Source: Hygrophila difformis
Lineage: Eukaryota > Streptophyta > Magnoliopsida > Lamiales > Acanthaceae
Direction of reading: 5' to 3'
Length of the DNA: 64,000 bases
Assembly (NCBI GenBank): GCA_030278955.1
Contig: JAOANR010000002.1
Coordinates: 8,421,982-8,485,981 of the forward strand
The notes beneath the pieces were generated by a model. That model was not told where the DNA came from. It searched no databases and saw only the letters and a program-made list of their open reading frames with translations. The position numbers and the translations under genes were made by a program. Shown here one piece after another: positions 8,859 through 55,462 of this stretch. Position 1 is the first letter of the stretch, and each line of letters starts with the position of its first letter.

Positions 8859-9660
8859 AGTTTGTGTCTAACGACGATGAAATATTTTCACTGAAATATC
8901 TAAACACGATCAAGTGTTCTAGATTACCGAATCATGAAATAAAGTTGAAGGATGGTTGCATAGTCATGCTTCATATGAATATAGATCTATCAAATAAATT
9001 ATGCAATGTAAGCATGTTGATAGTAACCAAGATGCGAAACCATACAATTCAGGCTAAACTGATTTCGGGAAACCACGAAAGTAGAAAATTATTGATGGGT
9101 AGACTGATTATAAGTCCATCCAATTTAACCAAATTCTGCATTCGATTTGAGAGGAGAAATTTTCCACATACGATTTGTTTGCTATGATTATAAATGAAAG
9201 TGAATGTCAATCTTTAAAGAAGATTGGACTATATCTTCCAAAATCAGTTTTTAGCCATTAACAGTTATATGTTGCAATATTTTGTGTCACTAGCAAGATG
9301 TGATTCAAAGTATTAATATGTAGATAAGATGGATTAACTCAAGAGACCATAAAAAATATTGTTTACAATAAAATTTTTATATGGTAGAAAATCTGCAAAA
9401 TGAATAATTGATGTAGGTGTTGGTAAAACATGTATTGATCTTGGGGATGTACAATCAGATGTGACATTTACAGATGATAGTATTCTAAACTCTACAGGTG
9501 ATTGTATAGCGGCAATTTTATAGAGTACATATACAAATATAAAGTGCTCGACTTCAAATCCAGATATTTTTAAAGATAGTGCTATACTATTCCCTACCAA
9601 TGAGATGGTTGATACGATTAATTATTACATCATGGAACGTATGGCTGCGAATGAAATTTC
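8859..9660 (+). pseudogene. Helitron helicase C-terminal fragment, copy 1
   Basis: The PIF1-type helicase C-terminal part of RepHel. The open part (about 8857-9187) reads YLNTIKCSRLPNHEIKLKDG, then NIDLSNKLCN, then KLISGNH and the FERRNFP segment, matching the conserved order in plant Helitron helicases. Beyond the stop the homology continues out of frame through GLYLPKSVFSH-like and TRNIVYNKI-like segments (9215-9375), then passes into the upstream portion of the next copy (IDLGDVQSDV at about 9435, TNEMVDTINYYIM at about 9597). Many stops. Together with the next two copies it forms a direct repeat of about 0.8 kb. Confidence 0.75.
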
Positions 9661-21751: not shown

Positions 21752-24700
21752 TAAATATATATATATATGTCCATCTACTATTCATGGTAACCTAAAATGA
21801 CCGAAATATCCTCTCCAACTTTCTTTATTTTGTTTATGCCATTGGGCCTTCTTTGGACTCTTTCACACACCTTATGCTTGGGCCTGTCCTCACCAAAATT
21901 GATGTATACAATAATGCTGACCTTTTCGATATAGGGTTTGTGACACCATGCTTCAGTTCCATTTCCCGATTGGCATCATTCCATTATGGTTCTGGTTACC
22001 ATGTCATTTTATAAGTGTGACCCCGGCCGGGTGAAAGGCGTGCTGGCGGAGACTGGAGCGGTGACGGCGGTGGCGTCATACGTAGGGCGGTATGCGAGCA
22101 GATGGGGTGGCGTATAATCTGTGGGGGAATGGAGAGGAAGAGACGATGGAGAAAAGTAGGGCAAGGAAGTCTAATGTAGAATGAGAAGACGGGGAAAAAG
22201 ATGGGTCAAAGAGAAAGTGAGGAAAATTGGTCTAAGAATTCAACAAGGGCAAAACAGCTATTAACGGGCTCCTCCATTTCCCGATTAGGGTTCGTCCCTG
22301 CAATTATTGTCCTAATTGCTGTACATGTAGTAGAATCTTTTCTTTTATCTTATAAGTGTGACTCCTCCAAAAGCTCTATTTTATTATTGACCGTTCGATG
22401 AAAGATCCAATTGAAACTGTGACCGTCAGATCAAATTTTTGCTTCTCCTTTCACCTCAATGCCAGCCATTTTCTCTTCTCGATTCGTCTGAACGCTTCAG
22501 CCCTAATTTTTCGCAGCTCAATTTTTTCGCAGCTCAGTCCAAATTTTCGAAAGGTTTCAGCCCTAATTCGTCTGAAGATCAAATTTTTCGCAGCTCAGGC
22601 CAAATTTTCGAAAGGCTTCAGCCCTAATTTTTCGCAGCTCAACCCTAACTTTGCGCCATTGAAGATCAAATTTTTCGCAGCTCAGCCCTGATTTCGAATC
22701 GTTGGATTAGATTAAATTGAAACTACGACTGTTGGATCAGATTCAATTCCTTTATACATCCGGCTTACCCAGGGTTATCGGGTGCTCTAAAATATGCCTT
22801 TTCTCTTGCGCAGGGCTGCCTCCCGCAACCGCCGACGCATCTCCTTTCCTCCTCCGCTGCTCCGATCGTCTGTGCCGCTCCCCTTCCTCTTGTTCCAGCC
22901 GTCGAATGCCGCACCTCCGTGTGCGAAAGACGGCCCCCTTCCGATCGCGCCTGTTGGCGACCACATCCACGCTGCCCTTTCGCCATCACGATCGCTCAAC
23001 TGTTTTGCTTGCCTGTGAGTTTTTCCCCAATCCACAAAAAATGTATTTTTGGCATTTTTCTATTATTTCAGGATTCAAATTAGGTTTCCCTTTTATTTTC
23101 TGCTGTGTGTGAAGTAATAAATCACCGTGTCTGCGCGCTCCCCGCCTCAGTTATTACGTATTTGCGGAAGTCGGAGTGAAATCCTATAGAAATTACACCA
23201 TGGCCGGGCAAGCAATTTACTGGCATCACGTGAGTGTGAGAGGTTCGGGGCAGAGGCGCCGTCACAGGTGGCAGAAAAGGGAGAGAGACTCTCCTCAAAC
23301 ATACCCGGGCGGCTGTGGGCTGCGGAATAGCCGCTCTACGAAACCCTAATCTTAAGCTACTCGAGAGATTATATTGTTGGGTGCCAATCCCCTGGTTTTG
23401 CCATCTTCTATTACGGTCGGTTCCGTTTTCCTTTGATTTATTTCACAGATTCAGTTGTTTTCTTTCAGCTTCTATGAATGCCGATGCATGTGCTTGATAG
23501 AGAATCAACTGCCTAATTCAAGAGCAGTGGATGCGATGATTCTTTTATGTTCAAGTTATTTATTGTTTTTTTGGCAGTTGAGTGTTGTCGTGCGGCGATA
23601 TTTTTTTGAAGAATATGATGATCGTATTTGTTGCCCCAGTCTTAATTTGTATCGATCAATTGATGCAATGTGATGATTGATGTTTTCTTATCTTCCTAAT
23701 TGCAGTTGAGAACAAGCCCCTAATTCACGGGTGCAGTGGAGGTCCCAAGAAATATTTGACCAGAACCATAATGGAATACTGCAACCATCTTCAGTTTACC
23801 ATTTAAGGTTTCGGACCAAAATATTCTGATAACTTTCGATGGAGGCCAACGATCTTCGAAGAGGATCTGTAGGGACGCCTACCGCCGGCTTAACGGCCGA
23901 GATCTGGTTTAATTTATTTTTTCGTTTCCTTACTTGCTGCATTGGACCTGAAAAGTGCTTTCAATGCGATTGCGGTTTGCATTGTTGAATTTTGGTGTAA
24001 AACTGATGATTGTGGCTTTAGTTAATTATGTATGCTTATTTTGTCCTGCTTCAGTTTATAATCATTAGTTTGGATGATACCTCCGACTGCCGAGTGAAGA
24101 GAATGGAAAGACTGCTATAAAAGTGTTGTCCAAGTGAGTATAAATCAAGCTGATTTCCAGTTTCAGTTGTGTTATGGGATGGATGAGTTTGAGCCAAGTA
24201 ATGATACGGAATGTGTGGACTCAGACATTCAGCTTCGTGATTGAGGCGAAGCAAACTACAAACCCCACTTGTTGCTTGATACAATGTGCTTCTTCCTTCA
24301 TGGTTTTCCTTTTGGGACCGAGTTTTTTTGTACTATTTCTTGCCTTTTTTGTCCTTGCGTCTGCATCCGGGCATCGTAAAGGGTCATTTGGGTGGACTCT
24401 TGTTGGTGAAGCTATTTATTTTTTGAAGCCTCATACATCTACCTCAACTGGAGCTTTCTTGAAAGAACATTGGTCAAGGTAAATCTTTTAATTTTGAACT
24501 TAGTAATCATGTCTGTTCTTTATGGGTTTTTACATAAAGTTGTTGCAGGCATAACTTCTTTTACAGAGAAGGATTGCACTGCATTATTACCAAAGTAGTG
24601 ATTCTTTTTTTTAAAAAATTTTTTTTAATGATTCTGTCATGGTTCTTCATGGAGCACACATTTACTTTCAGTGACCAGGCACGTGATTATCTTAAAGCCA

Positions 24701-30631: not shown

Positions 30632-30643
30632 GGAAAAAAGGCC

Positions 30644-31133
30644 TGTTGTGCGTGAAATTTGTATAGAACGAAAGTCTCTTCTTTGATTGACAATATTGGG
30701 TGAATTACAAAGAACTGTCGAAAGGAACCTTGCAAGAAAACTAAAAATGCAGAAAACAAAGGAATTACAGAAACTTTAAAGAAATAAAAGTGCAATTGTT
30801 GTGTAGAATTGTCGGGGCCTTAAAAGTGAGCAACCCTTTGGTTTTTATATGCGGAGTTCCTCAACTGTCAAGCAATCCCACGATCCCTTCTAGGCCAGGT
30901 GTCATCTTGCCGACCATCCTGCTAGCATTCCTACAGATGTCTTCAAGAAACTTCCCGTCTAAAGAAACCTCCTGTCCTAATCTCTTCGTGACTCCTGGGC
31001 TGGCCTTCACATGAAGAACGAGGCTTGTACATGAAATGGGCTTCAACCTTCTGGACCACTAATTGTATGCAATGGGCCACCAAATATACTTAATAGGCCA
31101 TTAAATTAGACCATTAAATTTACTTGGTTAACA
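30644..31133 (-). repeat. 3' LTR of the Tat element
   Basis: 490 bp, identical to 44268-44757 except A at 31021 where the other has G. On the element strand it begins TGTTAACCAAG and ends CGCACAACA. Confidence 0.95.
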
Positions 31134-31215: not shown

Positions 31216-31223
31216 TATAAAAA
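31216..31223 (+). promoter_or_regulatory. TATA box of the antisense gene
   Basis: TATAAAAA, 116 bp upstream of the ATG at 31332, with about 85 bp between the expected start site and the ATG. It lies between the LTR edge (31133) and the gene, so the antisense gene appears to have its own promoter rather than using the LTR. Inferred from position and sequence only. Confidence 0.5.
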
Positions 31224-31331
31224 GACATCAAAGTCACAATTGCAAAATTTTTTTTTTTTTTTTCTCTAATCCCACTTTCGGCCGCCACTTCGTGTTGGCC
31301 GCCGTTGCTGGCCGCCTCTCTGACCGTCGTC

Positions 31332-34300
31332 ATGAGCTCCTCACTGCGAACCTCTCCTTGCTCCGAACCATCTGCCGAAGACTCAGCCGTCACGCAAAGC
31401 CTTCAGGCCACCACTCACGAAACCCTAGCCGCTTCAACCGCCCTCCGAGGCACGTTGTCCGCCAATGTCGCGACCACCCAGGTTGGTCTCATCTCTTGTT
31501 TTCATGTTGTCTACTTTTGCTGGCCATGTTATGTGCAATCTATATTTTCCTTTGATCGCATATTTAGTACATGTTGTCGGATGACTCAAAATTTTATGAG
31601 ATAAAATTCAATCTTTTTTATTGTACGGCCTTGATGATTTAGAACTTGAGTAGGTCGCTTGATATTGTTAAATTAGAACTTAGAAAAAATAACATATGCC
31701 AAGAAAATCTTGACCACCACACTGTTAGGCTCACTTTAATAACTCACGTTGAGGCTCACTTTAATAGGCTCACCTCAAAAAGGCTCACTTTGATAACTCA
31801 CATTGAGGCTCACTTTAATAGCTCACGTCGATAGGCTCACCTCAAAAGGCTCACTTTGATAACTCACGTTGAGGCTCACTTTAATAGCTCACGTTGATAG
31901 GCTCACCTCAAAAGGCTCACTTTGATAACTCACGTTGAGGCTCACTTTAATAGCTCACGTTGATAGGCTCACCTCAAAAGGCTCACTTTGATAACTCACG
32001 TTGAGGCTCACTTTAATAGCTCACGCTTGATAGGCTCGCCTCAAAAGGCTCACTTAGGGTCATAGGGCCGCCCAAGATATGCCTCCTGTCTTAACAAATC
32101 ATGCTTATAATCTCCATGGACGCATGCTTATCGTGTTATTTGATTACTTAGGACTCAACAAAATCACCTACACCACTTGTGGCTTCAAAACCCGCGGCCG
32201 CCACGGAAGACACCTCGGCCGCCACTGGAGGATCTTCAAGCGTTGCTCCACGCTCATCTACTACTCAGGTTTGTTTTGCTGCATACCACTTTATTCGGTT
32301 ATCAGATCAATCTAAATTCACATATCCTATCAATATGCTCCGTGACATAAGTCCTGACAAAACTCCCTACCCAGGCCGCCATTTCCAAGATCTTGGCCGC
32401 CATTGAGAGACCTTTGGCCGCCAGTTCGCAGCCCTTTGGGACTGTTGCTCCGCGTTCGACCACTGCTCAGGTACATCTCGATATGTAATGTCACTCTTTT
32501 CGTTTTATCAATCAAGCTCTTTCGGGCAACACCCGTACTCCTCAGGACTTAACGAAATTGTACTATAGGTCACCTCATTGCCAAACCGGGTTATCACTAC
32601 ACCACTTTCCGGCCACGGTGTAGGGAAGGAACCTCGAACTTTATTTCGAGACTCAACTGCCACCACATGAGTCTCCACACAAGGAGGATCAGTCGCTACA
32701 TCAGTGATGCAGGCCGCCACCCTGCCACCTGCAGGTTCGAGTTTCGCAGCCTTGTCGTCTCGCACACCAGCTTTTCAGGTTTGCCTTAGATACGTTGGCA
32801 TTCAATCTTCTTTTCCTTAACGTGGTTCCCAATCGATGAGGGTTTAATCATGATTTACTATGTAGGCTTTGGTGAGTTCCAGTGTACCAGGTGCCACAAA
32901 AGAATTACCGGACACTATACTTAAGCTCAAAGCAGCCGCTCAGGCGTCAACTGCCTTCCAGCTAGGTCACACCTTAGTTAGTACGCCTGGCTTCTCTGGT
33001 CCCGGTCATCCTCGTGTTCCGTCTCCCCAGGTTAGTGTATGACTCTTCCTTATCACCTATCTAACTTGGTTTTTCTCATATAATTTCTTATCCCTCTCTT
33101 CAATGATATAGGACATGGAGGACCTCCCTTCATCTGATGATGAAGCTTATGACTTTACTAGGGAGGAACCGGTGCCTGTCCTCCGACCCTTTCATCATAC
33201 TGGTGTACATGGAACTGCCACTGTCCATGACTTCCTATCTTGCTCGCTTCCCATTACTCAGGCGGCGTTTACTAGGGCTTTCATTACCCGTACTAAGATC
33301 ATTAAGTCTCACCAGTCGGCTGCATCTAAGTCAGTGTCCAAGCGTAAAAAGAAAACCTCAAAGAAGACTCAGACCGAAAGTAATTGCACGGAGCGATATA
33401 TTGACTGGGCTCATCGGATGCAGAGATCCTTTCATAGAGACTGGGAAAAATGGGGAATCAAGGATGCCATCCTCTTATCCATCAAGCCTATTGCTCTCGA
33501 CCATCACATGTTATACTACTTTATGGGCTTCTGGAATTCCTCAGTGAACGCGTTCCAGCTTCCTTGTGGATTCATAGGTCCTACCCTTTTAGACGTTATG
33601 ATGATTACGAGACTGTCTGTTGTTGGTCTGGAGTTGACACAGTCCGTTGGATCAGAGGACTCTCATCTTGGCGACCTGATCTGCCCCGTAGGCAAGGCAT
33701 CCAAGCGATACGCAGCTTTCATCGACCATAATAGAGTGAACGGACCTCCGACACGCAGAGAGCATGTTGCATTCCTTTTGATGTGGTTCAGTCGGTTCAT
33801 TGTCTGTTCTAGTGCCCGGACAGTATTACGTATGGCGTTACCCTATGTTCAAGCCATCGTGGATAGCGACGGGGACGATACTTGGGCGATTGGCTCATAT
33901 CTTCTCGCCACTTTGTTCAGTGGCCTGTCAAAGGTAGCCACTTTGCTTGCCAAGGGTACAGATCCTGGGGTCAAGGCTTCAGGCCCTTTATGGTTTATGC
34001 AGCTCTGGATTCAGCTGTACTTCCCACGTCTGTTTCATGATGTGGCTCGTCCTTCCCCGCAAGATTGCAGGCCGAACACACCCTTGTGTTTTCCTCTAGC
34101 CGATCAATCTTTGCGAATTCGCGAAGGTAAACTCTTAGACAAGGATGGACTGCAGATCATGCGCTGGCTTCTAGCTTACAAGCCGGGTCCCCTTGGTTTG
34201 TTCCCCTACGCCCAGCGGGGTACACTGTTGGCTGCTCTGATATGTTCGCCACTCGAGCCAGACGCCAACTTTGGCGAGGACACATGGAACGCTGCTTTGA

Positions 34301-36602
34301 AGCCACACCTACTATTGAGTGGTCTTCGGCAAAACGACAAGTCCAACCCGCTCAATGCTGAGTCTTATTGTCCTCACTTACTAGCTCGCCAGTTCGGATG
34401 TCGACTTGGTCTTCCACGTGGAGTAGCGTGGCCAGCTAGGAGAGGCTCGGGGTTGACTGATTCAGATCTCCATGCTATACTCACGCTGCTGAGTCGCCTG
34501 CCAGATTCATCATATTTGCCATTCACTCCTTCAGGGACGCTTGCTACTCAGTTTATGGCTTGGTGGACACCGTACATCGCCAAGCTCTTGCCGACTGAGG
34601 ACAGCCTCGTAGCGCGTTTCGGACTTGCATCTTCACATCCAGTCCCTCACACCACAGGACAGTCTTCGTCTAGGCCTCCGGCTTGCCCGCCGCCTGATCC
34701 GGCCCCTAGTACTCGTGGTGTTGCTATATGGTCAGCTCCCGTGCCTGCGACTCATGACGTTGCCAGGAAGAAATCATATGCGTCTCATCTATCTCGCAAA
34801 CGCCAACGAGGTAAGTTCATCATACGTCTCATATGTTCTCTTCCATCTCCCTCTGTTGTCGCCTAACCCCTGTTAACTTATACAGATTCATCCCCTGGAT
34901 CTCGCGGGGTGTCTGCCGGTAGTAGTTCGAGCTCTTTAGCCCATGATGGAGAAACTGATGAAGATGTTACTGACGGCACCGAAGATCGTGATGACGACGA
35001 GGGTGAATCCGCGAGTTCAGATGAGGACGAGGATCAGATGAGCGAGGACGGCGCTGGAGATGATGCTCGCCCTGATACCGACCCAGTTGACCCCGATGAT
35101 GATCACTCATGTGAGGGGGTTGGCGCAGTTCATGATGACGAGCTACCGGCTCGTGCTGACTACATATGTGCTCATGGGGTGGATGATCCCAGATACCACA
35201 CTGATGCCCAGGAGACCGCGGTTGAGGATCCCTCACAGGTATGTTTGGCTACCTTGTATTCTTTAGTAGTAGTTTGTCTCTGTCTTGATAACTTATTGCA
35301 ACATTCTTTTTACTTTCAGGCCCACGTGGATCCATCTCTCCCCTCTACTGATGATATCTCCACTAACATCGATCGGGCCTCTCAGGTATTTATTGATTAT
35401 TTTGCCCTTAATTTCGACTTATTTCTCGAGACATAACGAATCCTCACGCCTCATTCTTCCAGGTCTCTTTGGATCAGGGAGATTGTCCGCCTTCCGCTCA
35501 GGCTGCTTCTCATACCTCTGCAGTTAAGCCGACTCCCACGCTGGCCTCTCAGGTATTTCTAGCCTCATAATGTTTTCATTCCCCTGTCTGCCTTCATCTT
35601 TGCGGAGGAACATATGCTAAGGAATGTTCGCTTGTTTCAACCATAGGCCCTTACTAGTCAGACGCCACTTTCAGTTATCGATTCTGCCGTACATTCAGCT
35701 GCTTTAGTCGACCACGCCCCGACTCCTCAGGTATTATTCTTTCTTGTCCTCGTTATAGTTAGCTCTCTCTATTGCTAATTTTAATATGTCCTCACTTGCA
35801 GGTGCCCCAGGTTCCCTCTGCAGATCCTATGATTTCGATCACCCATACTCCTCTCAGTGGCGATATTGCTAGAGCATGTGAGGCGTTTGACCGCTTTCTT
35901 ACCTCCCATACAGGCCCCGTGACCGCCGAGATAGTCTCCGGTCTGGACGACTTGCTCATTGCTATCAGCTCGACCTCCACCTTTGTTGAGGATGCCGACT
36001 TCCAGGATTTTTCATATCTTATCTCCGAGCTGTCTTTCTTTTTTCCCAGTTACAGGAGTATTGCAGATGAGTCTGCTGAGGTGTTGACCCTTATTGACGA
36101 CCTTGAGTTACGACACCGTGAGACTCTTTCTCAGTTGGAGGCGATTCGTCCTCAGCATGCGCAGTTATCTCAGGCTCGTGCGGCTCAAGAAAAACAAAAA
36201 TCACAGCTGGAGAGTGCCATCACACGTGCAGAGGGCGATATCAGAGAGTCAGAGAGGATTATTGCAGAGGCAGAACGTGCTATCGCTCACGAGAGACGCT
36301 CCATTGCAGATAGGGAGCGTACTATTCAGGAGGCCAAGGATGGGCTTACTTCTCTCGAGTCTAGCTGGACCGAGACTTCTACACAGGCCGCTGTTTTGCA
36401 GACCACTTACGACCGCTTAGTCGCCGACCAGCGCGACCTATCAGCTGAGTTGTCGAAGGGTCTTCGACCCCGGGCGGATGCTCGCGCTCGTGTTGCCGAC
36501 GCTGCTTTTCATCGTATTACCGACACCTTTAGGCGTACATGCGATCGTTGGGCAGTCATGCGAGGTCGCATACTTGGTAGTAGGATGCCACCTTCTTCTT
36601 AG
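31332..36602 (+). CDS. Antisense 11-exon plant mobile domain protein inside the Tat element
   Basis: Runs opposite to gag-pol, from near the 3' LTR to 166 bp short of the pol stop. Exons: 31332-31481, 32152-32268, 32375-32470, 32713-32778, 32866-33030, 33112-34810, 34886-35238, 35320-35385, 35463-35552, 35647-35730, 35802-36602. All ten introns are GT-AG and the joined frame is uninterrupted (3687 nt, 1228 codons). Residues 1-198 are Ser/Thr/Ala/Pro-rich. A basic stretch (KRKKKTSKK, about 276-284) looks like a nuclear signal. About 295-720 is the plant mobile domain (FHRDWEKWGIKDAILLSIKP, then LPCGFIGPTLLDV). An acidic region covers about 770-880, and a long coiled coil about 1057-1182. Mobile-domain proteins act in the nucleus (MAIN/MAIL) or ride on transposons. 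The role here is unknown. Splicing is predicted, not shown. Confidence 0.85.
31727..32060 (+). repeat. 66-bp tandem repeat in intron 1 of the antisense gene
   Basis: About five units of 66 bp built from GGCTCACCTCAAAAGGCTCA, CTTTGATAACTCACGTTGAG and GCTCACTTTAATAGCTCACG. The unit itself is made of shorter GGCTCAC.. sub-repeats. It lies wholly within the 670-bp first intron (31482-32151). The regular spacing is that of a minisatellite and there are no distinct spacers. Confidence 0.85.
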
Positions 36603-39700: not shown

Positions 39701-40182
39701 TTTGCAAGCCATTCTACATAACGACAAGTTCTAATGTAACCTGCTCTAAGAAGTTTTTCGATCTCAGTCTTTATTTTTGGGATGGTGTCTGGATCAAACC
39801 GTCTAGGCGGCTGCTTGTGAGGTCTGAACTCGGGATGAGTGGGTAACTGGTGTTCCACGAGCTCCCTTGGAAGTCCTGGCATATTCGAGTATTGCCACGC
39901 AAAACAATCCTTATACTTCTGAATCAGCTCCACTAGTTGGTGCCGCTCTTTATCAGGCAGAGACGCACTTATTTTGGTCAGCCTTGGCTCCGCCTCCGTC
40001 CCGAGATTGATATCCACAAGTGGTTCCTTAGCTTCTGGACTAGGTAGTATCCGCTTCACAGGTGAGGGCCACTCGGATGGCCTACTGTCTACCAAATTTT
40101 GAGACTTGTCCTCGGCGCCCATCATCACTTCAGTATCTACCAGCCGCCGCAACAAGTCTTTGTAGATGTCTTGGCTGCTCAT
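36769..40182 (-). CDS. pol: Pol: RT, two RNase H domains, integrase (Tat element)
   Basis: 1137 codons from the first ATG (40182); the frame is open 6 nt further. Residue numbers below count from 40188. RT lies at about 145-345 with LMDGYSGYNQI and YIDDIVVKS (catalytic aspartates near 214 and 279-280). A first RNase H covers about 425-545 but has LYVSAAEES where an Asp is usual, so it is probably inactive. A second, archaeal-type RNase H (about 564-690: FDGSCASSG, NNQAEYEAL, GDSQVI) is the hallmark of the Tat lineage. Integrase has the HHCC finger (about 782-827) and the DDE core: GMDIIG, ITADQGT, NGQAEATN (about 852, 912, 948). No stops, matching the young LTRs. Probably made as a Gag-Pol polyprotein. 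Confidence 0.93.
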   Translation of the reverse strand: MSSQDIYKDLLRRLVDTEVMMGAEDKSQNLVDSRPSEWPSPVKRILPSPEAKEPLVDINLGTEAEPRLTKISASLPDKERHQLVELIQKYKDCFAWQYSNMPGLPRELVEHQLPTHPEFRPHKQPPRRFDPDTIPKIKTEIEKLLRAGYIRTCRYVEWLANIVPVVKKNGQLRVCIDFRNLNLATPKDEYVMPMADMLVDAAAGHKFLSLMDGYSGYNQIFISENDVHKTAFRCPGPVGIFEWVVMPFGLKNAGATYQRAMNMIFHDLIGHMLEVYIDDIVVKSCEFGQHLDHLEQAFIRMRQHGLKINPAKCAFGVAAGNFLGFLVHERGIEVDQNNAKAILEARAPSNLKELQSLMGKINFLRRFIANAAGKMKAFTTLLKGRKNDVFNWTAEHQAAFEEIKRMLANPPVLMPPRLGEPLKLYVSAAEESIGCLLAQDDEYGKERAIYYLSKTLQGPEARYTALEKSCYALVYACNKLEHYMLPRTVHVVAPFDLVKTLLQRPALKGRHAKWAMKISPFTLVHVPQKAVKGQALADFLAQHPSVMLPEEPEESFIGFEPWELTFDGSCASSGSGAGITITSPFGEHWKLARELEPGTTNNQAEYEALIFGLETALMKGARSIVVFGDSQVILKQLTGEYECKSPRLIRCYETALELLGKFSEATIKHVPREQNKEANEAAQLASGWYADCPRGATGIAVLTNDSEDQEEIQPQNPVGDWRTDITKYLENPSSGGDSSMKVNVLRYTLVDGELFRRALDGLLLKCIGPEEAKLVMGEVHEGICGSHRAGPSMRWSIHRYGYFWPTIMEDCITYARGCEACQKHGPIQRVPAEELHSVVKPWPFRGWGMDIIGKIHPPSSKNHAFILVATDYFTKWVEAWPMRKIDQSDVIKFVTELIHRFGIPRTITADQGTVFTGEKFMAFAKQFGIRIYHSTPYYPQANGQAEATNKILVSMIKKAVGDKPRKWHEALSEVLWAYRNSKSTATGFTPYYLTYGHDAVLPLEITVPSLRVAQQHHLELAKYEEAMLQELETADGDKLVALENIRRHKAKIAKYYDKKVRSKMFSEGDLVWKVILPSGVRDNETGKWSPNWEGPFIVTQKLINGAYKLMDIDGQEHKQSINAKYLKTYYPSVWESE

Positions 40183-40184
40183 GA

Positions 40185-40345
40185 TCAAAAACTTGATACC
40201 TCTTGCCGGCCATCCGCTGAGTGAAGCTTGAAACCGCTTGAAGTAAAATCAATGGACTCCAAGTCCACATCGACGCCAATTAGAGCTGAAGCAGGCTGAA
40301 TGTCTTCTAAGTAGAAAACGGCCTCATCATTATCGTTGTGGCTGA
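40185..40345 (-). other. Protease-RT linker in a shifted frame
   Basis: Gag ends at a stop (40330-40332) just after the protease segment VELVEADPQP. The next coding-like segment (DNDEAVFYLEDIQPASALIG, then GVDVDLESIDF) is in a different frame and ends at TGA 40187-40185. Pol resumes in the original gag frame at a run of five T (AGTTTTTGATC). So gag and pol share a frame but the linker does not, which needs two compensating shifts, or splicing, to give one polyprotein. Confidence 0.7.
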
Positions 40346-43300
40346 GGATCTGCCTCCACCAATTCAACGTGATTACCATCCCATATGAGTAACTGTTGGT
40401 GTAGGGTGGAAGGCACACATTCTGCCATATGGATCCAATCACGCCCTAACAATGCCGAATAACAGGTCTTTGACTTTACCACAAAGAAAGCCACTTTGAT
40501 AGTCTTAGACCCCACAGTGACGTCCGCCGTTATGAACCCTGCAGGTTGGGTCGCTTCTCCCACGAAGCTACACATCCTGACCCTGGTGGGGATCAAATCC
40601 TTCTCGCTCTTTCCCAATTTCTTCAGAGTTGACATCGGGAGTACATTTGCCGCTGCCCCATTGTCGACGAACACCCTGGTGAAGGGACGTCCATCAATAT
40701 GGGCCTTGACATACAAGGGTTTCAACTGTCTCGTTTGAGACACCTCAGGCTTGGCGAAGTGAGCCGAGGCTGGCCTCTGAACTGATTGACCACCTAACTC
40801 CTCCAGCAAACATCTAGCCGGGTGAGACAACTCGGCTATCATTTCATCCATTTCTTCAATCAATTTGGCAAATGGCGGCTCCTCTTCATCCCACACTTCG
40901 GACTCCACATCACTGACATCTTCGTCTGCTGCCAACCCCACGACTTGCATGGACACCGCTGGGTCCGTCGGTTCTTTTTCTTGCCCGTACTCGTAACCTT
41001 CTTCCTTTAACTTATTTTCCAGATCCTCCCAGAAAGCATCCATGTAAGCCTCTTCATCCAGATCCATACCATCCAACATGTTAATGTCGTCAGGCATGAT
41101 TCCCAAGGCGCTAATCCCAACCTTAGGCTCCTCTATGTTGGCGTCCATAGCGGCTTCCACTTCCTTAGGGGTGACCGCCCCAAAGTTCACCCGCGCAGCC
41201 TCATGGGCAGGCTGAAACTCCGGCTGTGACTTCGCCTGTTCAGGACCATCTACTGTCTTACAGTAAGCCAGGAATCCCTCATAGCTATCCGGTTCACTTC
41301 CCAATTCACCGGCCTGGTGGGCCGCTATGTATGCGAAGTATCTAGTGAGCACCTTCATCATGGCCATCTCCCTTGTACTGGTTGTACCCGGCTCGCCCAT
41401 ATGCTCAAATCTCTCCATGAACTTATCTGCCCAGGACATAGTCACCCTTTTCTCATTACTCGATTCAGCCAAGGCGGTCGCTTTGCCCTTGTCTTGGGAT
41501 GAAGGCGACTGAATTTTAATCTGAGTAGATTCCACCTCTGTCACCCTAGGCTGAGATGATGATGGTTCACGTTCTGCCCACTGAAGCCTTTCCCGAATTG
41601 GTCTTCTAGTGGAAGAAAGTGGCGACTGGAGTGCCTCCCTGGGTGTCTTATGTGACCCCCTCCTATCACCTTCTCGGCTCGGTTGAAGCCGCTCATGAAC
41701 TGGTCTGCGAGGTGGTACAGGGGAATTAGGCCTCCTAGTAGTATGTCTTCCCTGAGGGTGTTGTAACCTCTCATGAACAGGCCTTCGCCGTTCAGAAGTC
41801 TCACCTTGAGACCTGAAGTAGGTTGGTTGAATTGGCTTCCGAGGCCTAGATGACTTCAACTTATGAAGCTGAGCCTCCCATTGCCGCATTTCCTCGGCAT
41901 ACCTTCTTTGAGCCCTCCTGAATTGGCCTTTGGTCATGGCTGGCGGCTCCCTCGGAGCGGATCTCCTCTCTGCCCGATTCATCATCCACCTTTCAGCCTC
42001 CGCGGGTTGCTCAGGACGTCTCATCAAAGTTGGTACTACATGTACTCCCGGCCTGTAGTCCCGAGTTATAGGCTGATGTCTACCATTTTCACGGATCTCT
42101 AATGCCGGTTTTGGGATCTCAACCTTCAATGGAGGCTTCTGCTTCTTCTGATACTCTTTCTCTTCAGCATCGAGGACTTTCTTGAACTCCTCTTTGGACA
42201 TACTTTTAAACTTAGGCTGCTTGCTAAATAATTCCTTTTCTTTTTCAGTCTCGGATTCATCAGACAACAAGTCCTCATCCTGCTCACTGATCTGAACACA
42301 TTCGCTTCCTTCATCAGTCCGGCTACTAGAGCCGCCAACTTCTGGATTTGGGATGAACCCAGAAGCACCAACGTGAAGCTGAGGGAAGGGGTCTATGTCC
42401 ACCTTCATACCTGCAATTTTTAGCCGTCCCTCTTTAATCTTATTATGAATAGCACTTCTAAAACTCCTGCACTTAGTAATGCTATGAGTATAGGAGTTGT
42501 GCCACTTACAGAATGACCGGCCTCGAATTTCTTCGGTCGCTGGCAACTTCTGCCCTTCGGGCAGCTTAATAACTCCGTCCTTGAGTAGGGCATCAAACAC
42601 TTGGTCCGCCCTGCTCATGTCAAAGAGATCCTCCTCAGGCCTGTACTTGGCCTCCTTCTGTTTGGGCGGCCTGAGGGCCGTACAAGTGTGTGGCTTGGCT
42701 GTCTGGACCAATTCCGCTACAGCCACCTCCAGAGGTTCGTCCTCCTCATCGCCGAACCTCACCTCTTCAAAGTGGACTCTACGTGTGGGACGTTTTTCTT
42801 CCTGTTCCTCCAGGAACTTTTCCAGTCGGGCCGCTCTCTCGGCCAACTGGGCAAGGTCAATCGCATCCTGCACAATCAAATGTTCCTTCAATTTAGGCAA
42901 CATGTTAGTTACTGCTATATTGGCTATTTCCCTTTCAGGAATTGCCATTGTACATCGGCCTTTAAGCCGCTGTAACCTATTAATGAAAGCATTTGCCGTT
43001 TCATCGGCATATTGTTTTGCGTTAGTCAGGTCTGCGAGGCTAACCTGTGACAATGGTGTGTAAAACCTGTCATGGAAAGCTCGCTCCAAGTCAGCCCAAT
43101 TCTGAATGGAATTAGACCGCAACGATGCATACCATGCGAAAGCAGGACCAGTAAGGGATGAGCTAAGAAGTCTCAATTTGAGCCAGTCGTTGGATGCTGC
43201 TTCCCCACATTGTGCAGTGAACCTCCCCACGTGTTCCACGGTGGACCTGCCATCATCCCCTGAGAACGTGGAAAATTCGGGCATCTTAAATCCTCGTGGG

Positions 43301-44211
43301 TAGGGTTGCATGCTATCTACCCAATCAGGGTACGGTTTGCGGTACGTAGGCCGCTCCATCGGCCTCAATTGGATGCCAAAGTGTTGCTGCATCATGTCAG
43401 CAAGCAACTCGGGCGATACTGCTGGCGTCTGCGCAGATGGTAACGCCACTGGGGGTGAAAAAGGAGCCACGGCGGCTGGTTGCGGTGTCTGCCCCCCTTG
43501 TAGTGGTGTCTGTCCCCAGGGTTGGGGCGCTTGTCCCCAAGGCTGCGTTGTCACGAAGGGTCCCACCGAAACGTTCGGCACGTGAGGTGCCGCTTGGCGT
43601 GGCTGCATACCAATGCCACCAGAGGCCGCTGTACAGCCTGGAGATACACTGGAAGCCACCAAACAACCTGGCGCCGCATAAATGGGTGTTGGGGGCGCTA
43701 CAAATCCAGGGTTCGGCATCAGGGGTGCCGCTGGGTTGGAAGCATAGGTTGTCTGGAAATGATTCACCAGTGGATTGACTAAGCCTCCCATATCGGGGAT
43801 TGGCGGCTGGTTGTTGGGTGCTGTACCCCAAGTTCTTAACTGACCGCCTGACGGCCCTGAACACGGCAGCAAGTTAGCGCCGTTTGCAGGAACGGTTGCG
43901 GGAGTAGTTGCTTCCTGTTGAGTCCGCAAGGCATTGATGCCCCTGTCAATTTGATCGGCCATAGCAGGCCGCAAAACATCCATAAGATGCCTCGTTAGTA
44001 GAGGCATGAACTCGGCCATCGATTCTGTCATCGAAAGCCGCATTTGTTCTGCAAATGTAGGGGTCTGTATGATCCCCTGTTGTGGTTGTGCAACAGTCGT
44101 CGTCTCAGTCACCTCTCCAGACGACGTTCGAACAGGTGTCTTCTCTTGCAGAGACATTTCTTCGAATTTCTGTGTAAGATCACTTACCAGACGTCCTGAT
44201 CTTAGACGCAT
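40330..44211 (-). CDS. gag: Gag and protease of the Tat element
   Basis: 1293 codons from the ATG at 44211 (MRLRSGRLVSDLTQKFEEM); the frame is open upstream through the primer binding site. A Pro/Gln-rich N-terminal part has repeated PWGQTP-like motifs. The retrotransposon Gag domain starts near residue 310 (FKMPEFSTFSGDD, WLKLRLLSSSLTGPAFAWYA, FHDRFYTPLSQVSLADL, LQRLKGRC). A long Arg/Glu-rich, probably disordered middle follows, with a repeated RRPVHERLQ motif at about 780-870. The aspartic protease is C-terminal: FTRVFVDNGAAANVLP, where DNGA stands for the usual D-S/T-G, followed by LLGRDWI. Gag packages the RNA and the protease cuts Gag and Pol. The gag-only element at 52181 has a clear homologue. 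Confidence 0.92.
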   Translation of the reverse strand: MRLRSGRLVSDLTQKFEEMSLQEKTPVRTSSGEVTETTTVAQPQQGIIQTPTFAEQMRLSMTESMAEFMPLLTRHLMDVLRPAMADQIDRGINALRTQQEATTPATVPANGANLLPCSGPSGGQLRTWGTAPNNQPPIPDMGGLVNPLVNHFQTTYASNPAAPLMPNPGFVAPPTPIYAAPGCLVASSVSPGCTAASGGIGMQPRQAAPHVPNVSVGPFVTTQPWGQAPQPWGQTPLQGGQTPQPAAVAPFSPPVALPSAQTPAVSPELLADMMQQHFGIQLRPMERPTYRKPYPDWVDSMQPYPRGFKMPEFSTFSGDDGRSTVEHVGRFTAQCGEAASNDWLKLRLLSSSLTGPAFAWYASLRSNSIQNWADLERAFHDRFYTPLSQVSLADLTNAKQYADETANAFINRLQRLKGRCTMAIPEREIANIAVTNMLPKLKEHLIVQDAIDLAQLAERAARLEKFLEEQEEKRPTRRVHFEEVRFGDEEDEPLEVAVAELVQTAKPHTCTALRPPKQKEAKYRPEEDLFDMSRADQVFDALLKDGVIKLPEGQKLPATEEIRGRSFCKWHNSYTHSITKCRSFRSAIHNKIKEGRLKIAGMKVDIDPFPQLHVGASGFIPNPEVGGSSSRTDEGSECVQISEQDEDLLSDESETEKEKELFSKQPKFKSMSKEEFKKVLDAEEKEYQKKQKPPLKVEIPKPALEIRENGRHQPITRDYRPGVHVVPTLMRRPEQPAEAERWMMNRAERRSAPREPPAMTKGQFRRAQRRYAEEMRQWEAQLHKLKSSRPRKPIQPTYFRSQGETSERRRPVHERLQHPQGRHTTRRPNSPVPPRRPVHERLQPSREGDRRGSHKTPREALQSPLSSTRRPIRERLQWAEREPSSSQPRVTEVESTQIKIQSPSSQDKGKATALAESSNEKRVTMSWADKFMERFEHMGEPGTTSTREMAMMKVLTRYFAYIAAHQAGELGSEPDSYEGFLAYCKTVDGPEQAKSQPEFQPAHEAARVNFGAVTPKEVEAAMDANIEEPKVGISALGIMPDDINMLDGMDLDEEAYMDAFWEDLENKLKEEGYEYGQEKEPTDPAVSMQVVGLAADEDVSDVESEVWDEEEPPFAKLIEEMDEMIAELSHPARCLLEELGGQSVQRPASAHFAKPEVSQTRQLKPLYVKAHIDGRPFTRVFVDNGAAANVLPMSTLKKLGKSEKDLIPTRVRMCSFVGEATQPAGFITADVTVGSKTIKVAFFVVKSKTCYSALLGRDWIHMAECVPSTLHQQLLIWDGNHVELVEADPQPQR

Positions 44212-44246
44212 ACACTTCTTTAAAGCGGATATGGCTTTAATCTCGG

Positions 44247-44264
44247 GTCCCACTGGGCGTGCCA
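44247..44264 (-). other. Primer binding site of the Tat element
   Basis: TGGCACGCCCAGTGGGAC on the minus strand, 3 nt after the 5' LTR. From memory it fits the 3' end of a tRNA-Arg, as in Ogre-type elements. The identical 18-mer lies after the 5' LTR of the gag-only element (53760-53777). Confidence 0.8.
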
Positions 44265-44267
44265 ATT

Positions 44268-44757
44268 TGTTGTGCGTGAAATTTGTATAGAACGAAAGTC
44301 TCTTCTTTGATTGACAATATTGGGTGAATTACAAAGAACTGTCGAAAGGAACCTTGCAAGAAAACTAAAAATGCAGAAAACAAAGGAATTACAGAAACTT
44401 TAAAGAAATAAAAGTGCAATTGTTGTGTAGAATTGTCGGGGCCTTAAAAGTGAGCAACCCTTTGGTTTTTATATGCGGAGTTCCTCAACTGTCAAGCAAT
44501 CCCACGATCCCTTCTAGGCCAGGTGTCATCTTGCCGACCATCCTGCTAGCATTCCTACAGATGTCTTCAAGAAACTTCCCGTCTAAAGAAACCTCCTGTC
44601 CTAATCTCTTCGTGACTCCTGGGCTGGCCTTCACATGAAGAACGGGGCTTGTACATGAAATGGGCTTCAACCTTCTGGACCACTAATTGTATGCAATGGG
44701 CCACCAAATATACTTAATAGGCCATTAAATTAGACCATTAAATTTACTTGGTTAACA
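44268..44757 (-). repeat. 5' LTR of the Tat element
   Basis: 490 bp. Carries the promoter for gag-pol; on the minus strand a CATATAAAAACC box at about 44475-44464 is a likely TATA element. One mismatch to the 3' LTR. Confidence 0.95.
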
Positions 44758-45364
44758 AGGCCAAATACATTCGTTTTCTTTTTAAAAAAAGTCAAATTGG
44801 TCCTTTTTAAATTTTATTGCCGATTTAGTCCGCTACCTATGCTAATTATATTCATTTTAGTCCAAAAATCACTAATCCCTCGTAGGATGCTGACGTGGCA
44901 TTGATTTATTTTGGTCCTTTTCATTCTTAAAGGCGATTCAAGATTAAACACAAGGAGACAAAAGGCATGTGACTGTCCTTTTCATTCTTCGGCCCTCAGT
45001 TTTGAGCCAAACGTCCCCATTATCGTTTCTTTGTTGCCGGAATTTGAATATGCGCCGCGGGATTAGGGTTCGAATTGGGGGTGCTGCGATATGGGAGGTG
45101 ATTGAAATTAGAGTCGGGTCGGGTTACACACTTATTTGGCAAACACGTTGGAATGACAGCAATTCAAAACAGATCCAGCGTGTATGGTTTAGAATAAATC
45201 ATTGTCACGTCAGCGTCCTAGAAAGGATTAGTGATTTTTGGACTAAAGTGGATATAATTAGCATAGGTAGCGGACTAAATCGGCAATAAAATAAAAAAAA
45301 AAGGACTGATTTGGCTTTTTTGAAAAGAAAACGGATGTATTTGACCTTTTTTCCTTTGAATCAC

Positions 45365-48401: not shown

Positions 48402-49034
48402 ATGTACCTTCCTTCCTTGTTCCTCCTCACCCTTCTCTCCGCCGCCGCACTCGCCGCCGCCGACGACTTCTGCGTGGCGGATTTATCCCTCCCGAGCACC
48501 CCTTCCGGCTACTCCTGCAAGAAGCCGGCCTCCGTGACCGTCAACGACTTCGTCTACCACGGCCTCGCAACGCCGGGAAACACCTCCAACCTCATCAAGG
48601 CCGCCGTGAAACCGGCCTTCTCCACCCAATTCCCCGGCCTGAACGGACTGGGTCTCTCCATTGCCCGCCTCGACATTGCAGTTGACGGCGTCATCCCGAT
48701 CCACACCCACCCCGCCGCGTCGGAGATCATCGTGGTGGTGCAGGGGACCATATGCGCCGGGTTCATAACGTCGGCGACCAACAAGGTGTACGTCGAGTCG
48801 CTGAGCGCCGGCGACGTGATGGTGTTCCCGCAGGGGCTGCTGCACTTCCAGATAAACTCCGGGAAGACGCCGGCGGTGGCGTACGTGAGCTTCAGCAGCC
48901 CCCGACCCGGGCTTCAGTTAACCGATTACGCTCTGTTCGCCAACGATCTGCCGACGGAAACTGTGGCGAAGGTGACATTCCTGGACGTTGCACAGATTAA
49001 GAAGCTCAAGGGTGTTCTCGGCGGGACTGATTAA
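48402..49034 (+). CDS. Germin-like protein, GLP1/GLP3 (ABP19/20-like) subfamily
   Basis: 210 aa, single exon, GC-rich compared with its surroundings. Signal peptide at 1-20 ([20 protein letters not shown]), so it goes to the cell wall or apoplast. Cys24 and Cys39 form the usual N-terminal disulfide, and N60 (NTS) is a possible glycosylation site. The cupin has germin box 1 with HTHPAASE (His101, His103, Glu108) and box 2 with [16 protein letters not shown] (His148), so all four manganese ligands are present. The C-terminus [11 protein letters not shown] is typical of this subfamily, and length is as expected. Members form oligomers and may act as superoxide dismutases or in auxin and defence responses; the activity of this one cannot be told. 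Flanked on both sides by MITEs of one family. Confidence 0.95.
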
Positions 49035-52180: not shown

Positions 52181-53756
52181 TGTTATCACCCAAAAATATT
52201 TAGGCCCAATAAATTTAGTCCAATCCATTTTCCGAGGGGCCCAATCCAAAGGCCCATTAAGCTTAGCCCAATCCTTCGACAGGCCCAGTCCAATTTAAAA
52301 TTTATCCGGATAGACCAAGTGGTGAGAAGCCGCCATCTAGTTCAAGATTTATCCGGATGATGACCAAGTGGTGGGGAGAAGCTGGCAGCATAAGAGATTC
52401 ATGCAGGCAATCAAAATGGAGGAGGATCCGTTGTCATCAAGGCATAAGGAATCCTGAGCATTCAAGACATGCATCAAAGGATCGGACAGAGAGGATCATG
52501 GTAAGGCATTGAAGACTGAGGCGTTGTCTGAGGAGAGGATCATGGAGGGCGCCATCTAAGGAAGAGAGGATCATGGAATTGACAGGCGTTACAACTCCAC
52601 TCTTAAGCAGATAGACGTGGTGCTTCCCTATAAATAATAGGAGATAGCATCCCTGAGAGGCATCTACACACCCCCAAGAGTAATCGCACTTTCTTTATCT
52701 TTACTTTATGCCATTTCCTTTCTGCAAGTTTTCATTCGTGTTTTTTCATTCTGCAAATTTTTCATTCATTTACAGCTTTATTTCAATTCTTGTCATTCCC
52801 TTCAGTGAATCTTGTAATCATCTTCAACAGTATTGGTGTGACCACCATATTGAAGAAGCTTGAGGGTGAATGTTACATGAGCTACATCATTGCCAAGCTC
52901 ACCCATGAAGCAATAACCAACACCAGGATCGAAACGAAGCCAAACCGAAGCAAGATAGATCACCTTGGGCACCCCATTGTTGGTGCATTGAAGAAATGAG
53001 GCAGACACATTTTTGGCCTTGGTCGTGGGCACGCACAAGAGGAGAAATTAGACTGGTTTGTTGGTGCATTGAAAAAAGGAGGCAGAAACATTTTTGGCCT
53101 TGGGCGTGGGCACGCACAAGAGGGATCCGACCCCCATTACCCTATTTTAGCTTATTTCATTTCCTTCCCCACTTGTTCCATGTAATTTCAATTGGTATTC
53201 ACTAGATTTATCTTGGGATCATTATGTTAGGCTTAAATCCCATTTCTACCTTAGTATTTCTTGGTAATTGCATTTCTTGTTCCTAGGGGTTATATGTTAG
53301 GATTGGGGAAGGATCAAACATTCATTCAACTATCATTCATCTATCAAAGTTTATCTTTCTTTTGTTCATCTTTTGAGGGTATCAAAGGTTGATCATCTTG
53401 GGGATCAAGGGTTACTTGATTTCCACATCAAAACCGGGTCTATTCACATTGAATTTGTGTTAGGTTCGTCTTACTCAATTGGATTGCAAGTTTTGATTGA
53501 GTTAAGTATGTTCATTGATGCATTTTAGGTTTAGTTCTTGGGAGCTTGATCCTCATATCAAGTTTACTTGATCAAAACCCATTGTTTCATTGAACCCACT
53601 TGCCCTATCCTTTGTTTTGCTTTTGTTGCTTGTTTTCCCAATTTCTTGCTTGCATACATCACACTTGTCCTATCCTTTGTTTTGCTTTTGTTGCTTATTT
53701 TTCCAATTTCTTGCTTGCATACATCAAGTATTCAATCAAAAAATTCTTGGTTAACA
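52181..53756 (+). repeat. 5' LTR of the gag-only element
   Basis: 1576 bp, TGTTATCACC...TTAACA. A TATA box CCCTATAAATAATAGG lies at about 52627-52642. The segment 52835-53732 is absent from the 3' LTR and contains two pairs of direct repeats: GGCAGAAACATTTTTGGCCT-like units of about 60 bp at 52975-53040 and 53058-53123, and TCCTATCC..TTGCTTGCATACATCA units of about 64 bp at 53605-53665 and 53668-53726. Confidence 0.8.
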
Positions 53757-53759
53757 AAT

Positions 53760-53777
53760 TGGCACGCCCAGTGGGAC
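53760..53777 (+). other. Primer binding site of the gag-only element
   Basis: TGGCACGCCCAGTGGGAC, 3 nt after the LTR end. Identical to the site in the 14.1-kb Tat element. Confidence 0.8.
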
Positions 53778-53808
53778 ACGAGTGGAAACCATATCCGCTT
53801 AAGAGTGT

Positions 53809-55462
53809 ATGCTACTTAGATCTGGACGAGTAGTAATGGACTTAACTAAAAAATTTGAAGAAATGTCGCTACACAAAGAAACATCAGTGAGAACACCATC
53901 TGAGAACGCTGATAATGCGGCGAGCACCTCTCAAACACAAAAGGGAATAATGCAAGTCCCAACCCTCTCCGAACAGATGCGGCTATCGATGACTGAATCG
54001 ATGGCCGAATTCATGCCTTTACTTACAAGGCACCTTATGGACGCGTTGCGGCCTGCCATGGCCGATCAGACTGACAGGATATGTGGATCCCTGCGTACTT
54101 CGCAAGAGGGATCTATTCCAGCAAATGGTGCGATTATACCACAAAACATCCCATGTCCAGGGCCGTATGGCGGCCAACAAAGGATTTGGGGAACCACTTT
54201 TGGCCAGCCGCCACTCCCAGAGTCCAGAGGCCTGGCCAGTTTGCCCCCATTCCCATTTCAGGCCACGCATGCTTTCACTCATGCGGCACCTAGCATGCCG
54301 AACTACGGTTATGTGGCACCTCCCGTACCGGTGTATGTTTCATCAGAATGCTTGATGGCGGCCAACGCTGCACCAGGCTGTACGACGGCCTCCGATGGAC
54401 TTGGCATGGCGCCACGTCAGGCAGCGGCATCTTATGTGACGAATGTTCAAACCACACCTCATGTGGAAGCACCATTGAACCTTGGTTGGATGCCACCAAC
54501 ACTAGGGGGCAGACACCACAACCATGTGGAATGGCCGCGGCACCTGCCACACCAGCCGCCATACCTCCTTTAGCCGCCATGCCTCCTACGCAGACACCTG
54601 GTTGGATGCCACCAACACTAGGGGGCAGGCGTCACCGGCATGTGAAGTGGTGGCAACATCTATACCAACCACCATGACTCCTGCCACACCTCTAGCCGCC
54701 ATGCATCTTACACAGGCACCGACGGTCTCACCCGAGTTGCTCTCAGACATCATGCAGCAACATTTTGGAATTCAACTGAGGCCGATGGAGCGGCCTACGT
54801 ACAGGAAGCCATACCCTGATTGGGTAGACACCATGCAGCCATACCCCAGGAGCTTCAAGATGCCCGAGTTCACCACCTTCTCAGGGGATGATGGCAAGTC
54901 CAAAGTAGAACATGTGGGCAGATTCACGGCTCAATATGGTGAAGCGGCGGCCAACAACTGGCTGAAGTTGAGGCTGTTCAGTTCATCCCTCACTGGACCT
55001 GTCTTCGCATGGTTTGCATCCTTGCGGCCTTACTCAATTCAAAACTGGACCGATCTTGAACGGGCATTCCATGACAGGTTCTATATGCCACTGTCACGGG
55101 TGAGTCTCGCAGACCTTACTAATGTCAAACAGTTTGCCGATGAGGCGGCAAGCACCGTTATCAACCGACTACAGCGGCTTAAGGGCCGATGTACAATGGC
55201 AGTCCCTGATAGGGAGATAGCCAATATCGCAGTGGCTAACATGTTGCCAAAATTGAAAGAGCATTTAATTGTGCAGGATTCCACTTATCTTGCCCAGTTG
55301 GCCAAGAAAGCGGCCTGCATGGAAAAGTTCATTGAGGAACAAAACGAGAAGCGTCTACCTACACACGGGACTCGTTTTGAGAAATTGAAACATGATAAAG
55401 AGGAAGACGAACTAACAGTGGTGGCCAATGCAATAAACTTGGGTGGTAAAAACCCTGGATAG
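53809..55462 (+). pseudogene. gag: Gag relic of the gag-only element, frameshifted
   Basis: Begins ATGCTACTTAGATCTGGACG (MLLRSGRVVMDLTKKFEEM), the counterpart of the Tat element start. The first frame ends at 54573 and the homology continues in another frame from about 54530 to 55462, so a shift has occurred near 54530-54570. In that area a unit starting GGTTGGATGCCACCAACACT occurs twice, 117 bp apart (54484, 54601). The Gag domain itself is open: FKMPEFTTFSGDDGKSK, WLKLRLFSSSLTGPVFAWFA, FHDRFYMPLSRVSLADL, LQRLKGRCTMAVPDREIANI. The frame stops soon after the domain, before the zinc knuckle or protease positions. Confidence 0.85.

What the first reader, a model, noticed from the sequence alone, without database searches (positions are those of the whole stretch)
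31332..36602. Intact 11-exon antisense gene carried inside a young LTR retrotransposon
Seen: on the strand opposite to gag-pol, eleven exons with ten GT-AG introns join to one open frame of 1228 codons, from near the 3' LTR to 166 bp from the end of pol. Known: Tat-lineage elements can carry extra antisense frames, and plant mobile domain proteins are linked to transposons and to nuclear silencing and genome-integrity factors (MAIN/MAIL). Inference: because the introns are antisense to the genomic RNA they cannot be spliced out during retrotransposition, so a multi-exon gene can be inherited with its introns. It looks maintained by selection and may help the element against host control, or be an accessory protein with mobile-domain, acidic and coiled-coil parts.
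Basis: partly seen in the sequence, partly recalled or inferred. Interest (0 to 1): 0.92.

Follow-up and report, generated by a model that had tools for sequence, protein, structure and literature searches.

The report
Spliced antisense gene in plant retrotransposon
A plant jumping gene carries on its opposite strand a real gene in many pieces, whose cutting-and-joining sites natural selection has kept, so the element probably uses it; the copy seen here looks damaged.

Summary
A gene finder trained only on the element's gag-pol codons returned exactly these exons at three of four intron penalties and scored 351 against at most 63 in 60 shuffles. Exon 6 holds a plant mobile domain.

I compared 39 other copies from the same genome. 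In 21 diverged copies, splice dinucleotides of seven introns are kept in 262 of 290 cases, other GT/AG in the same introns in 291 of 869. Median dN/dS is 0.19-0.22 in the mobile-domain exon and 0.26-0.36 in exons 7 and 11. So splicing and protein were kept by selection.

"Intact" is not upheld for this copy. 5 of 17 close copies are fully open.

Antisense frames and mobile domains in Tat elements are known; a selected multi-intron antisense gene I did not find described. Function is inferred: probably a nuclear protein working against host silencing. No RNA was available.

The parts
44268..44757 (-). 5' LTR of the element
   Evidence: 490 bp, 1 mismatch to the other LTR
30644..31133 (-). 3' LTR; 5-bp duplication AGGCC at 30639-30643 and 44758-44762
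40330..44265 (-). gag and protease ORF
   Evidence: PF03732 and PF13975
36769..40188 (-). pol ORF: RT, RNase H, second RNase H, integrase
   Evidence: PF00078, PF17919/PF17917, PF13456, PF00665 in this order
31216..31224 (+). TATA-like box of the antisense gene, 82 nt from the LTR end of the internal region
   Evidence: motif at offset 75-86 in 19 of the 22 copies (of 39) whose polypurine end was recognised
31332..31481 (+). exon 1 with the ATG
   Evidence: gene finder; coding signal weak (rank 3 of 6)
31727..32055 (+). tandem repeat (25- and 66-bp units) inside intron 1
32152..32268 (+). exon 2, tandem duplicate of exon 3
32375..32470 (+). exon 3
   Evidence: acceptor AG at 32567-32568 in 39 of 39 copies, AG at 32711-32712 in 34 of 39
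32668..32670 (+). in-frame TGA in the long exon 4 of this copy, after 154 codons
   Evidence: a stop at this codon in 0 of 39 copies
32866..33030 (+). exon 5
33112..34810 (+). exon 6, with the plant mobile domain at about 33454-34566 and basic clusters at 33340-33366 and 34795-34809
   Evidence: PF10536, 89.5 bits, cut-off 34.9; clusters kept in 33 and 38 of 39 copies
34886..35238 (+). exon 7, acidic
35320..35385 (+). exon 8
35463..35552 (+). exon 9
35647..35730 (+). exon 10
35802..36602 (+). exon 11 with the stop codon; coiled coil at about 36063-36497
   Evidence: weak SMC-like matches far below cut-off; dN/dS 0.32 and 0.36

Best explanation
A young Tat-type Ty3/gypsy LTR retrotransposon in a 915-Mb plant genome carries, between pol and its 3' LTR, an accessory gene on the opposite strand. 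Shown from sequence: eleven exons (exon 4 most likely 32569-32778), splice sites kept by selection, purifying selection on the protein, a TATA-like box between LTR and ATG, a plant mobile domain (PMD), basic clusters that look like nuclear localisation signals, an acidic exon and a C-terminal coiled coil. Inferred: the host transcribes it from its own promoter and splices it; the nuclear protein acts in trans, most likely as decoy or partner of the host PMD silencing proteins (MAIN/MAIL with PP7L), easing the silencing of its family. The introns persist because they lie backwards in the genomic RNA and cannot be spliced from it, so each new copy inherits the whole multi-exon gene. The window copy looks disabled by a stop in exon 4, unless the downstream acceptor or the ATG at 33115 serves. 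My estimates: spliced protein-coding gene under selection 0.92; anti-silencing role 0.4.
For: Exact recovery of the exon chain with independent codon training and controls. Splice dinucleotides kept 262 of 290 against 291 of 869 for other GT/AG in the same introns; exon indels multiples of three in 34 of 44, 64 of 77 and 151 of 220 against intron indels 0 of 6, 26 of 86 and 19 of 125 (groups A, B, C). Median dN/dS in groups B and C: exon 6 0.19 and 0.22, exon 7 0.28 and 0.26, exon 11 0.32 and 0.36. PMD; basic clusters in 33 and 38 of 39 copies; TATA-like box at a fixed offset. The last exon lies beside pol in 32 of 41 pol rows (counted by hand, window included). MAIN and MAIL1 silence transposons and gypsy elements encode a PMD clade of their own (PMC5418596, passages); counter-silencing proposed (PMC8616336, passages).
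Against: No RNA evidence. Nothing here tests the function. Exon 1 is weakly supported and not alignable in distant copies (dN/dS near 1). Exons 8-10 show 0.73 and 0.67. The extra part of exon 4 shows no constraint: dN/dS 0.58, 1.09 and 1.03, no better than the other two frames. 12 of 17 close copies are broken somewhere. Some copies have lost introns: 9 of 13 in group C lack most of intron 8, and L012 lost one exon-intron unit. No relative with the full exon set was found outside this genome. The paralogous copies share ancestry, so the counts are not independent.
Confidence: 0.45

Rival explanations
1. The gene is real and spliced, but its protein serves replication directly: a nuclear accessory factor for import or chromatin targeting of the preintegration complex, or for the balance between sense transcription and packaging.
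For: Nuclear products and own promoters are reported for antisense genes such as Grande gene23, and a role like retroviral accessory proteins is proposed (PMC7264820, parts 1 and 2). Basic clusters and coiled coil fit.
Against: Most Ty3/gypsy elements manage without it (general knowledge); PMD relatives are silencing factors rather than integration factors.
Confidence: 0.3
2. The antisense RNA itself is the product: it pairs with genomic RNA and yields small RNAs that tune or silence the family; the frame is secondary.
For: Proposed for antisense transcripts (PMC7264820); PMD loci are rich in phased siRNAs in tea (175 PHAS loci; PMC10673657, passages).
Against: Protein-level constraint, frame-keeping indels and conserved splice sites are not needed for an RNA-only function.
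Confidence: 0.1
3. There is no spliced gene: exon 6 and exon 11 are separate single-exon antisense ORFs, as ORF surveys would list them, and the small exons are chance.
For: Each of the two is a long ORF of its own (583 and 276 aa), and exon 6 has its own ATG at 33115; surveys used single ORFs of at least 250 codons (PMC6317226, passages).
Against: Conserved splice dinucleotides in introns 2-7 and 10; eight of nine small exons best in the predicted frame; exons 1-5 alone score 64 against at most 24 in 60 shuffles; exon 7 dN/dS 0.26-0.28.
Confidence: 0.06
4. A recently captured host gene riding along without use to the element.
For: Only one PMD relative was found outside this genome, a pea protein at 30% identity.
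Against: Shared by subfamilies whose pol differs by dS 0.27-0.42 in six of seven copies checked and under constraint between them; PMD is reported in 57% of Ogre elements (PMC6317226, passages).
Confidence: 0.04

Closest known systems
PMD-bearing extra ORFs of Ty3/gypsy elements (PMD-A clades; 57% of Ogre elements)
   Same: PMD in an extra gene of a Tat-type element
   Different: Described as ORFs found one by one; here one frame over eleven exons with splice sites under selection. Clade membership not tested
Antisense ORFs between pol and 3' LTR (Grande gene23, RIRE2, Retand with Transposase_28 and SMC frames, PvRetro13)
   Same: Position and orientation, coiled-coil/SMC-like part, own promoter (in Grande), tandem repeats in the region
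   Different: No Transposase_28 match in the pieces scanned; multi-intron structure not reported in the passages I saw
Host PMD silencing proteins MAIN, MAIL1 (with PP7L)
   Same: Same Pfam domain
   Different: Host genes that silence transposons; this one is carried by a transposon and has extra N-terminal, acidic and coiled-coil parts
HBZ, the antisense gene of HTLV-1
   Same: Works like: antisense accessory gene near the 3' LTR with a nuclear product (PMC11963269, passages; its splicing is recalled)
   Different: Unrelated protein with far fewer exons (recalled)
Sense-strand introns of Ogre and EVADE
   Same: Introns in plant LTR retrotransposons (PMC12786077, passages)
   Different: Those lie in the genomic RNA and are only partly spliced; these lie on the other strand

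Membership tests
Tat-clade Ty3/gypsy retrotransposon, Ogre/Retand type | LTRs with TG..CA and target duplication | tested here: met
Tat-clade Ty3/gypsy retrotransposon, Ogre/Retand type | Second RNase H between RNase H and integrase | tested here: met
   Pfam order; criterion from PMC6317226
Tat-clade Ty3/gypsy retrotransposon, Ogre/Retand type | Place in an RT/INT tree; primer tRNA type (Ogre against Retand) | not tested
   no reference sequences used
Plant mobile domain family PF10536 | Score above the curated cut-off | tested here: met
   89.5 bits against 34.9, profile 1-346 of 347
Plant mobile domain family PF10536 | Clade PMD-A (gypsy) against genic clades | not tested
   family search of the genome did not complete
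Retand-type Transposase_28 antisense gene | PF04195 domain | tested here: not met
   no match in exons 1-5, 6, 7 and 11; exons 8-10 not scanned
Spliced multi-exon protein-coding gene | Splice sites and frame conserved among diverged copies | tested here: met
Spliced multi-exon protein-coding gene | Spliced transcript | not testable with these tools
   no RNA data; no retrocopy of the spliced mRNA among the listed matches
Transposon-encoded anti-silencing factor | Relieves silencing of its own family | not testable with these tools
   bench test needed

The most novel reading that the evidence does not exclude
Tat retrotransposons carry true intron-rich genes on their antisense strand, a class that ORF surveys cut into separate frames. 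Here one encodes a large nuclear PMD protein by which the element counters or imitates the host MAIN/MAIL-PP7L silencing complex, with phase-0 exon units gained and lost and the PMD module exchanged between subfamilies, as in an arms race.
Probability: 0.33. Interest if true: 0.85.

Novelty: new variant of a known kind. Interest (0 to 1): 0.66.

Why it matters
A 2025 review says that plant LTR retrotransposons generally lack introns, with Ogre and EVADE as notable exceptions (PMC12786077, passages), and a 2020 review asks for a look at antisense and spliced transcripts (PMC7264820). Here ten introns persist through retrotransposition because they face the wrong way, and selection has kept most of their splice sites. 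If this is general, antisense ORFs listed as separate frames may be exons of single genes, and element-encoded PMD proteins allow a direct test of whether PMD silencing arose from transposons or is attacked by them.

Tried and rejected
Structure of the PMD exon from a two-row alignment: mean pLDDT 31, not used. Protein searches: nothing for the joined protein, one pea relative for exon 6, each time with only the best word-sharing candidates scored. Viral contigs: no relative. Solved structures: no PMD by sequence. Retrocopy of the spliced mRNA: the query of joined exons had 229 matches from 40 scored candidates of 320, listed only in part; the listed ones end within about a dozen bases of exon ends, except one on C15 (L012), which is a deletion between the like ends of exons 9 and 10 and not splicing. 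An extra exon near 31677 predicted in several copies was not pursued. A first codon score with stops counted and exon 11 both trained and scored was replaced. L026 and L037 were left out of the dN/dS groups (37 of 39 used) because their gene region is cut or aligns only in part. In one search exons 1, 8, 9 (groups B, C) and introns 1, 8, 9 were left out, and indels over 60 nt dropped. Splice-site weights are recalled plant consensus values. Host PMD genes: the family search of the genome did not complete.
Full report
What was claimed.

The element. The LTRs are 490 bp with one mismatch, begin TG and end CA, and are flanked by AGGCC on both sides. With a recalled rate of 1.3e-8 per site and year, one difference means under 0.1 million years; this is rough. 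On the minus strand lie a gag-protease ORF and a pol ORF in the order RT, RNase H, second RNase H, integrase, the arrangement that PMC6317226 gives for Ogre and Retand (passages). The two ORFs are apart, with a cluster of stops between them; Ogre elements are reported with two ORFs 274 bp apart on average. I built no RT tree, so Ogre against Retand stays open.

The antisense chain. Chance control: the best open chain with at most ten introns reaches 1295 triplets, against mean 240 and maximum 460 in 100 dinucleotide shuffles and 159 on the other strand. Its score is 351 against mean 33 and maximum 63 in 60 shuffles; 16 control strands score 15 to 190, the highest in a region with another gag gene. 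The opposite strand of the same region gave 122 with 16 small exons, against 371 for the plus strand at the same setting. Exons 1-5 alone score 64 against at most 24 in 60 shuffles. Exons are 13.8 points richer in GC than introns; none of 5171 circular shifts, which are not independent, reaches this. With stop codons left out, the predicted frame is best of six in 8 of 9 exons that were not training data; exon 1 ranks third.

The protein. Exon 6 holds a plant mobile domain (PF10536, 89.5 bits, cut-off 34.9). Exon 7 is acidic. Exon 11 is a coiled coil with weak SMC-like matches far below their cut-offs. Two basic clusters that look like nuclear localisation signals (motif recalled) are kept by simple patterns in 33 and 38 of 39 copies. 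The only relative found in the protein database is a pea PMD protein, 30% identical over 63%; only candidates sharing most words were scored. Exons 2 and 3 are tandem duplicates. Nine of ten introns follow CAG and nine of ten are in phase 0.

Copies. The window lies in a 915-Mb genome. Exon 6 gave 491 candidates, of which 40 were scored: 19 at 98-100%, the window among them, and 21 at 78-86%. I fetched the gene region of the 39 others: group A (18, near-identical; L026 cut short), group B (8) and group C (13).

Exon 4. The short intron 3 (32471-32568) has GT and AG in 39 of 39 copies. The segment between the two acceptors differs in net length by a multiple of three, or not at all, in 39 of 39. 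The window's in-frame TGA at 32668 falls at a codon where 0 of 39 copies have a stop; two other stops occur in this segment in group C. Predicted afresh, 35 of 39 copies start exon 4 at 32569 and 0 at 32713. Against this, the segment shows no dN/dS constraint (0.58, 1.09, 1.03), no better than its other two frames, and the upstream acceptor has the weaker consensus score. I conclude that the family most likely uses the long exon 4 and that this copy would stop after 154 codons, unless the downstream acceptor or the ATG at 33115 is used. The gene is therefore not shown to be intact here. With the long exon 4, 5 of 17 group A copies are open with all twenty splice dinucleotides.

Selection. In group A exon 6 has 0.31 (37 of 39 copies). 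Copies within a group share ancestry, so these are not independent. The 3' part of pol in seven copies gives 0.08-0.11 in six and 0.37 in one with five stops, so the antisense gene is constrained, but less than pol. Splice dinucleotides of introns 2-7 and 10 are kept in 262 of 290 cases in groups B and C, other GT or AG inside the same introns in 291 of 869. Exon indels up to 60 nt are multiples of three in 34 of 44, 64 of 77 and 151 of 220 (A, B, C), intron indels in 0 of 6, 26 of 86 and 19 of 125. Splicing and protein have both been under selection between subfamilies. Introns are not beyond loss: 9 of 13 group C copies lack most of intron 8, and L012 lost one exon-intron unit by a deletion between the like ends of exons 9 and 10.

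Promoter. A TATA-like box stands 82 nt from the LTR end of the internal region. In 22 of 39 copies the polypurine end was recognised by a simple pattern, and 19 of these have a TATA-like motif at offset 75-86; such a motif anywhere in 260 nt of flank has a chance of 0.21.

Linkage to pol. Of 41 rows of pol matches, the window included, 32 have the last exon of the antisense gene beside them (counted by hand). The other nine were not among the scored candidates or are rearranged, which does not show absence.

Module exchange. Against the window, pol of four group B copies has dS 0.27-0.29. In the eight group B copies exon 4 has 0.19-0.34 and exon 11 0.19-0.31 (exon 5 alike, except one misaligned copy), but thirds of exon 6 have 0.53-0.97 in seven of eight and exon 7 0.75-0.92 in all eight. 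L027 has exon 6 at 0.28-0.42 and exon 7 at 0.75. Exon 6 is also raised in the three group C copies checked (0.38-0.79), so a foreign module in the window's own group, or a faster exon 6, is possible. Trees of the parts do not settle it.

Function. MAIN and MAIL1 silence transposons in Arabidopsis, and gypsy elements encode PMD clades of their own (PMC5418596, passages). That transposons may use PMD proteins against silencing has been proposed (PMC8616336, passages). A nuclear product and own promoter of an antisense gene are reported for Grande (as cited in PMC7264820, parts 1 and 2 of 3 read). My best reading is a spliced antisense gene for a nuclear PMD protein that works against host silencing (0.4 for that last step), with a direct role in replication as main rival. 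PMD genes are rich in phased siRNAs in tea (PMC10673657, passages), so the antisense RNA may also be a cost or a signal.

Known or new. Antisense extra ORFs and PMD domains in Tat elements are known. Nine searches of the held library (several with capped lists) showed me no description of a multi-intron antisense gene with conserved splicing in such elements. Papers not held, among them the 2011 survey of extra ORFs (not seen), could hold one. Hence: new variant of a known kind.

Noticed in passing
window 33112-35238; L027, L040-L045, L047: Synonymous divergence jumps in exons 6-7 against pol, exon 4 and exon 11 of the same group B copies, as if the PMD and acidic exons had been exchanged between subfamilies.
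   Followed up: partly
L012; window 35553-35730: One exon-intron unit is deleted between the like CTCAGGTATT ends of exons 9 and 10; shared phase-0 CAG/GT ends may let such units be gained and lost in frame.
   Followed up: partly
L028-L046 (group C); window 35386-35462: 9 of 13 group C copies lack most of intron 8; whether this is clean intron loss was not worked out.
   Followed up: no
L010, L017-L020, L022, L024 near window 31677: The gene finder adds an exon inside intron 1 in several copies; it may be real or a product of the tandem repeats there.
   Followed up: no
window 40150-40340: The gag-pro ORF ends in three stops in a row; another frame is open for a stretch before the pol frame begins, which may mean an intron or frameshift as in Ogre.
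   Followed up: no
window 53753-55462: A second, related gag (74% and 56% identical pieces) on the plus strand without a related pol or PMD in the window.
   Followed up: no
window 7223-9187: Helitron-like N-terminal domain and a Pif1 2B domain: a Helitron piece.
   Followed up: no
window 23611-23695 and 48402-49034: A snoU31b C/D snoRNA and a cupin gene.
   Followed up: no
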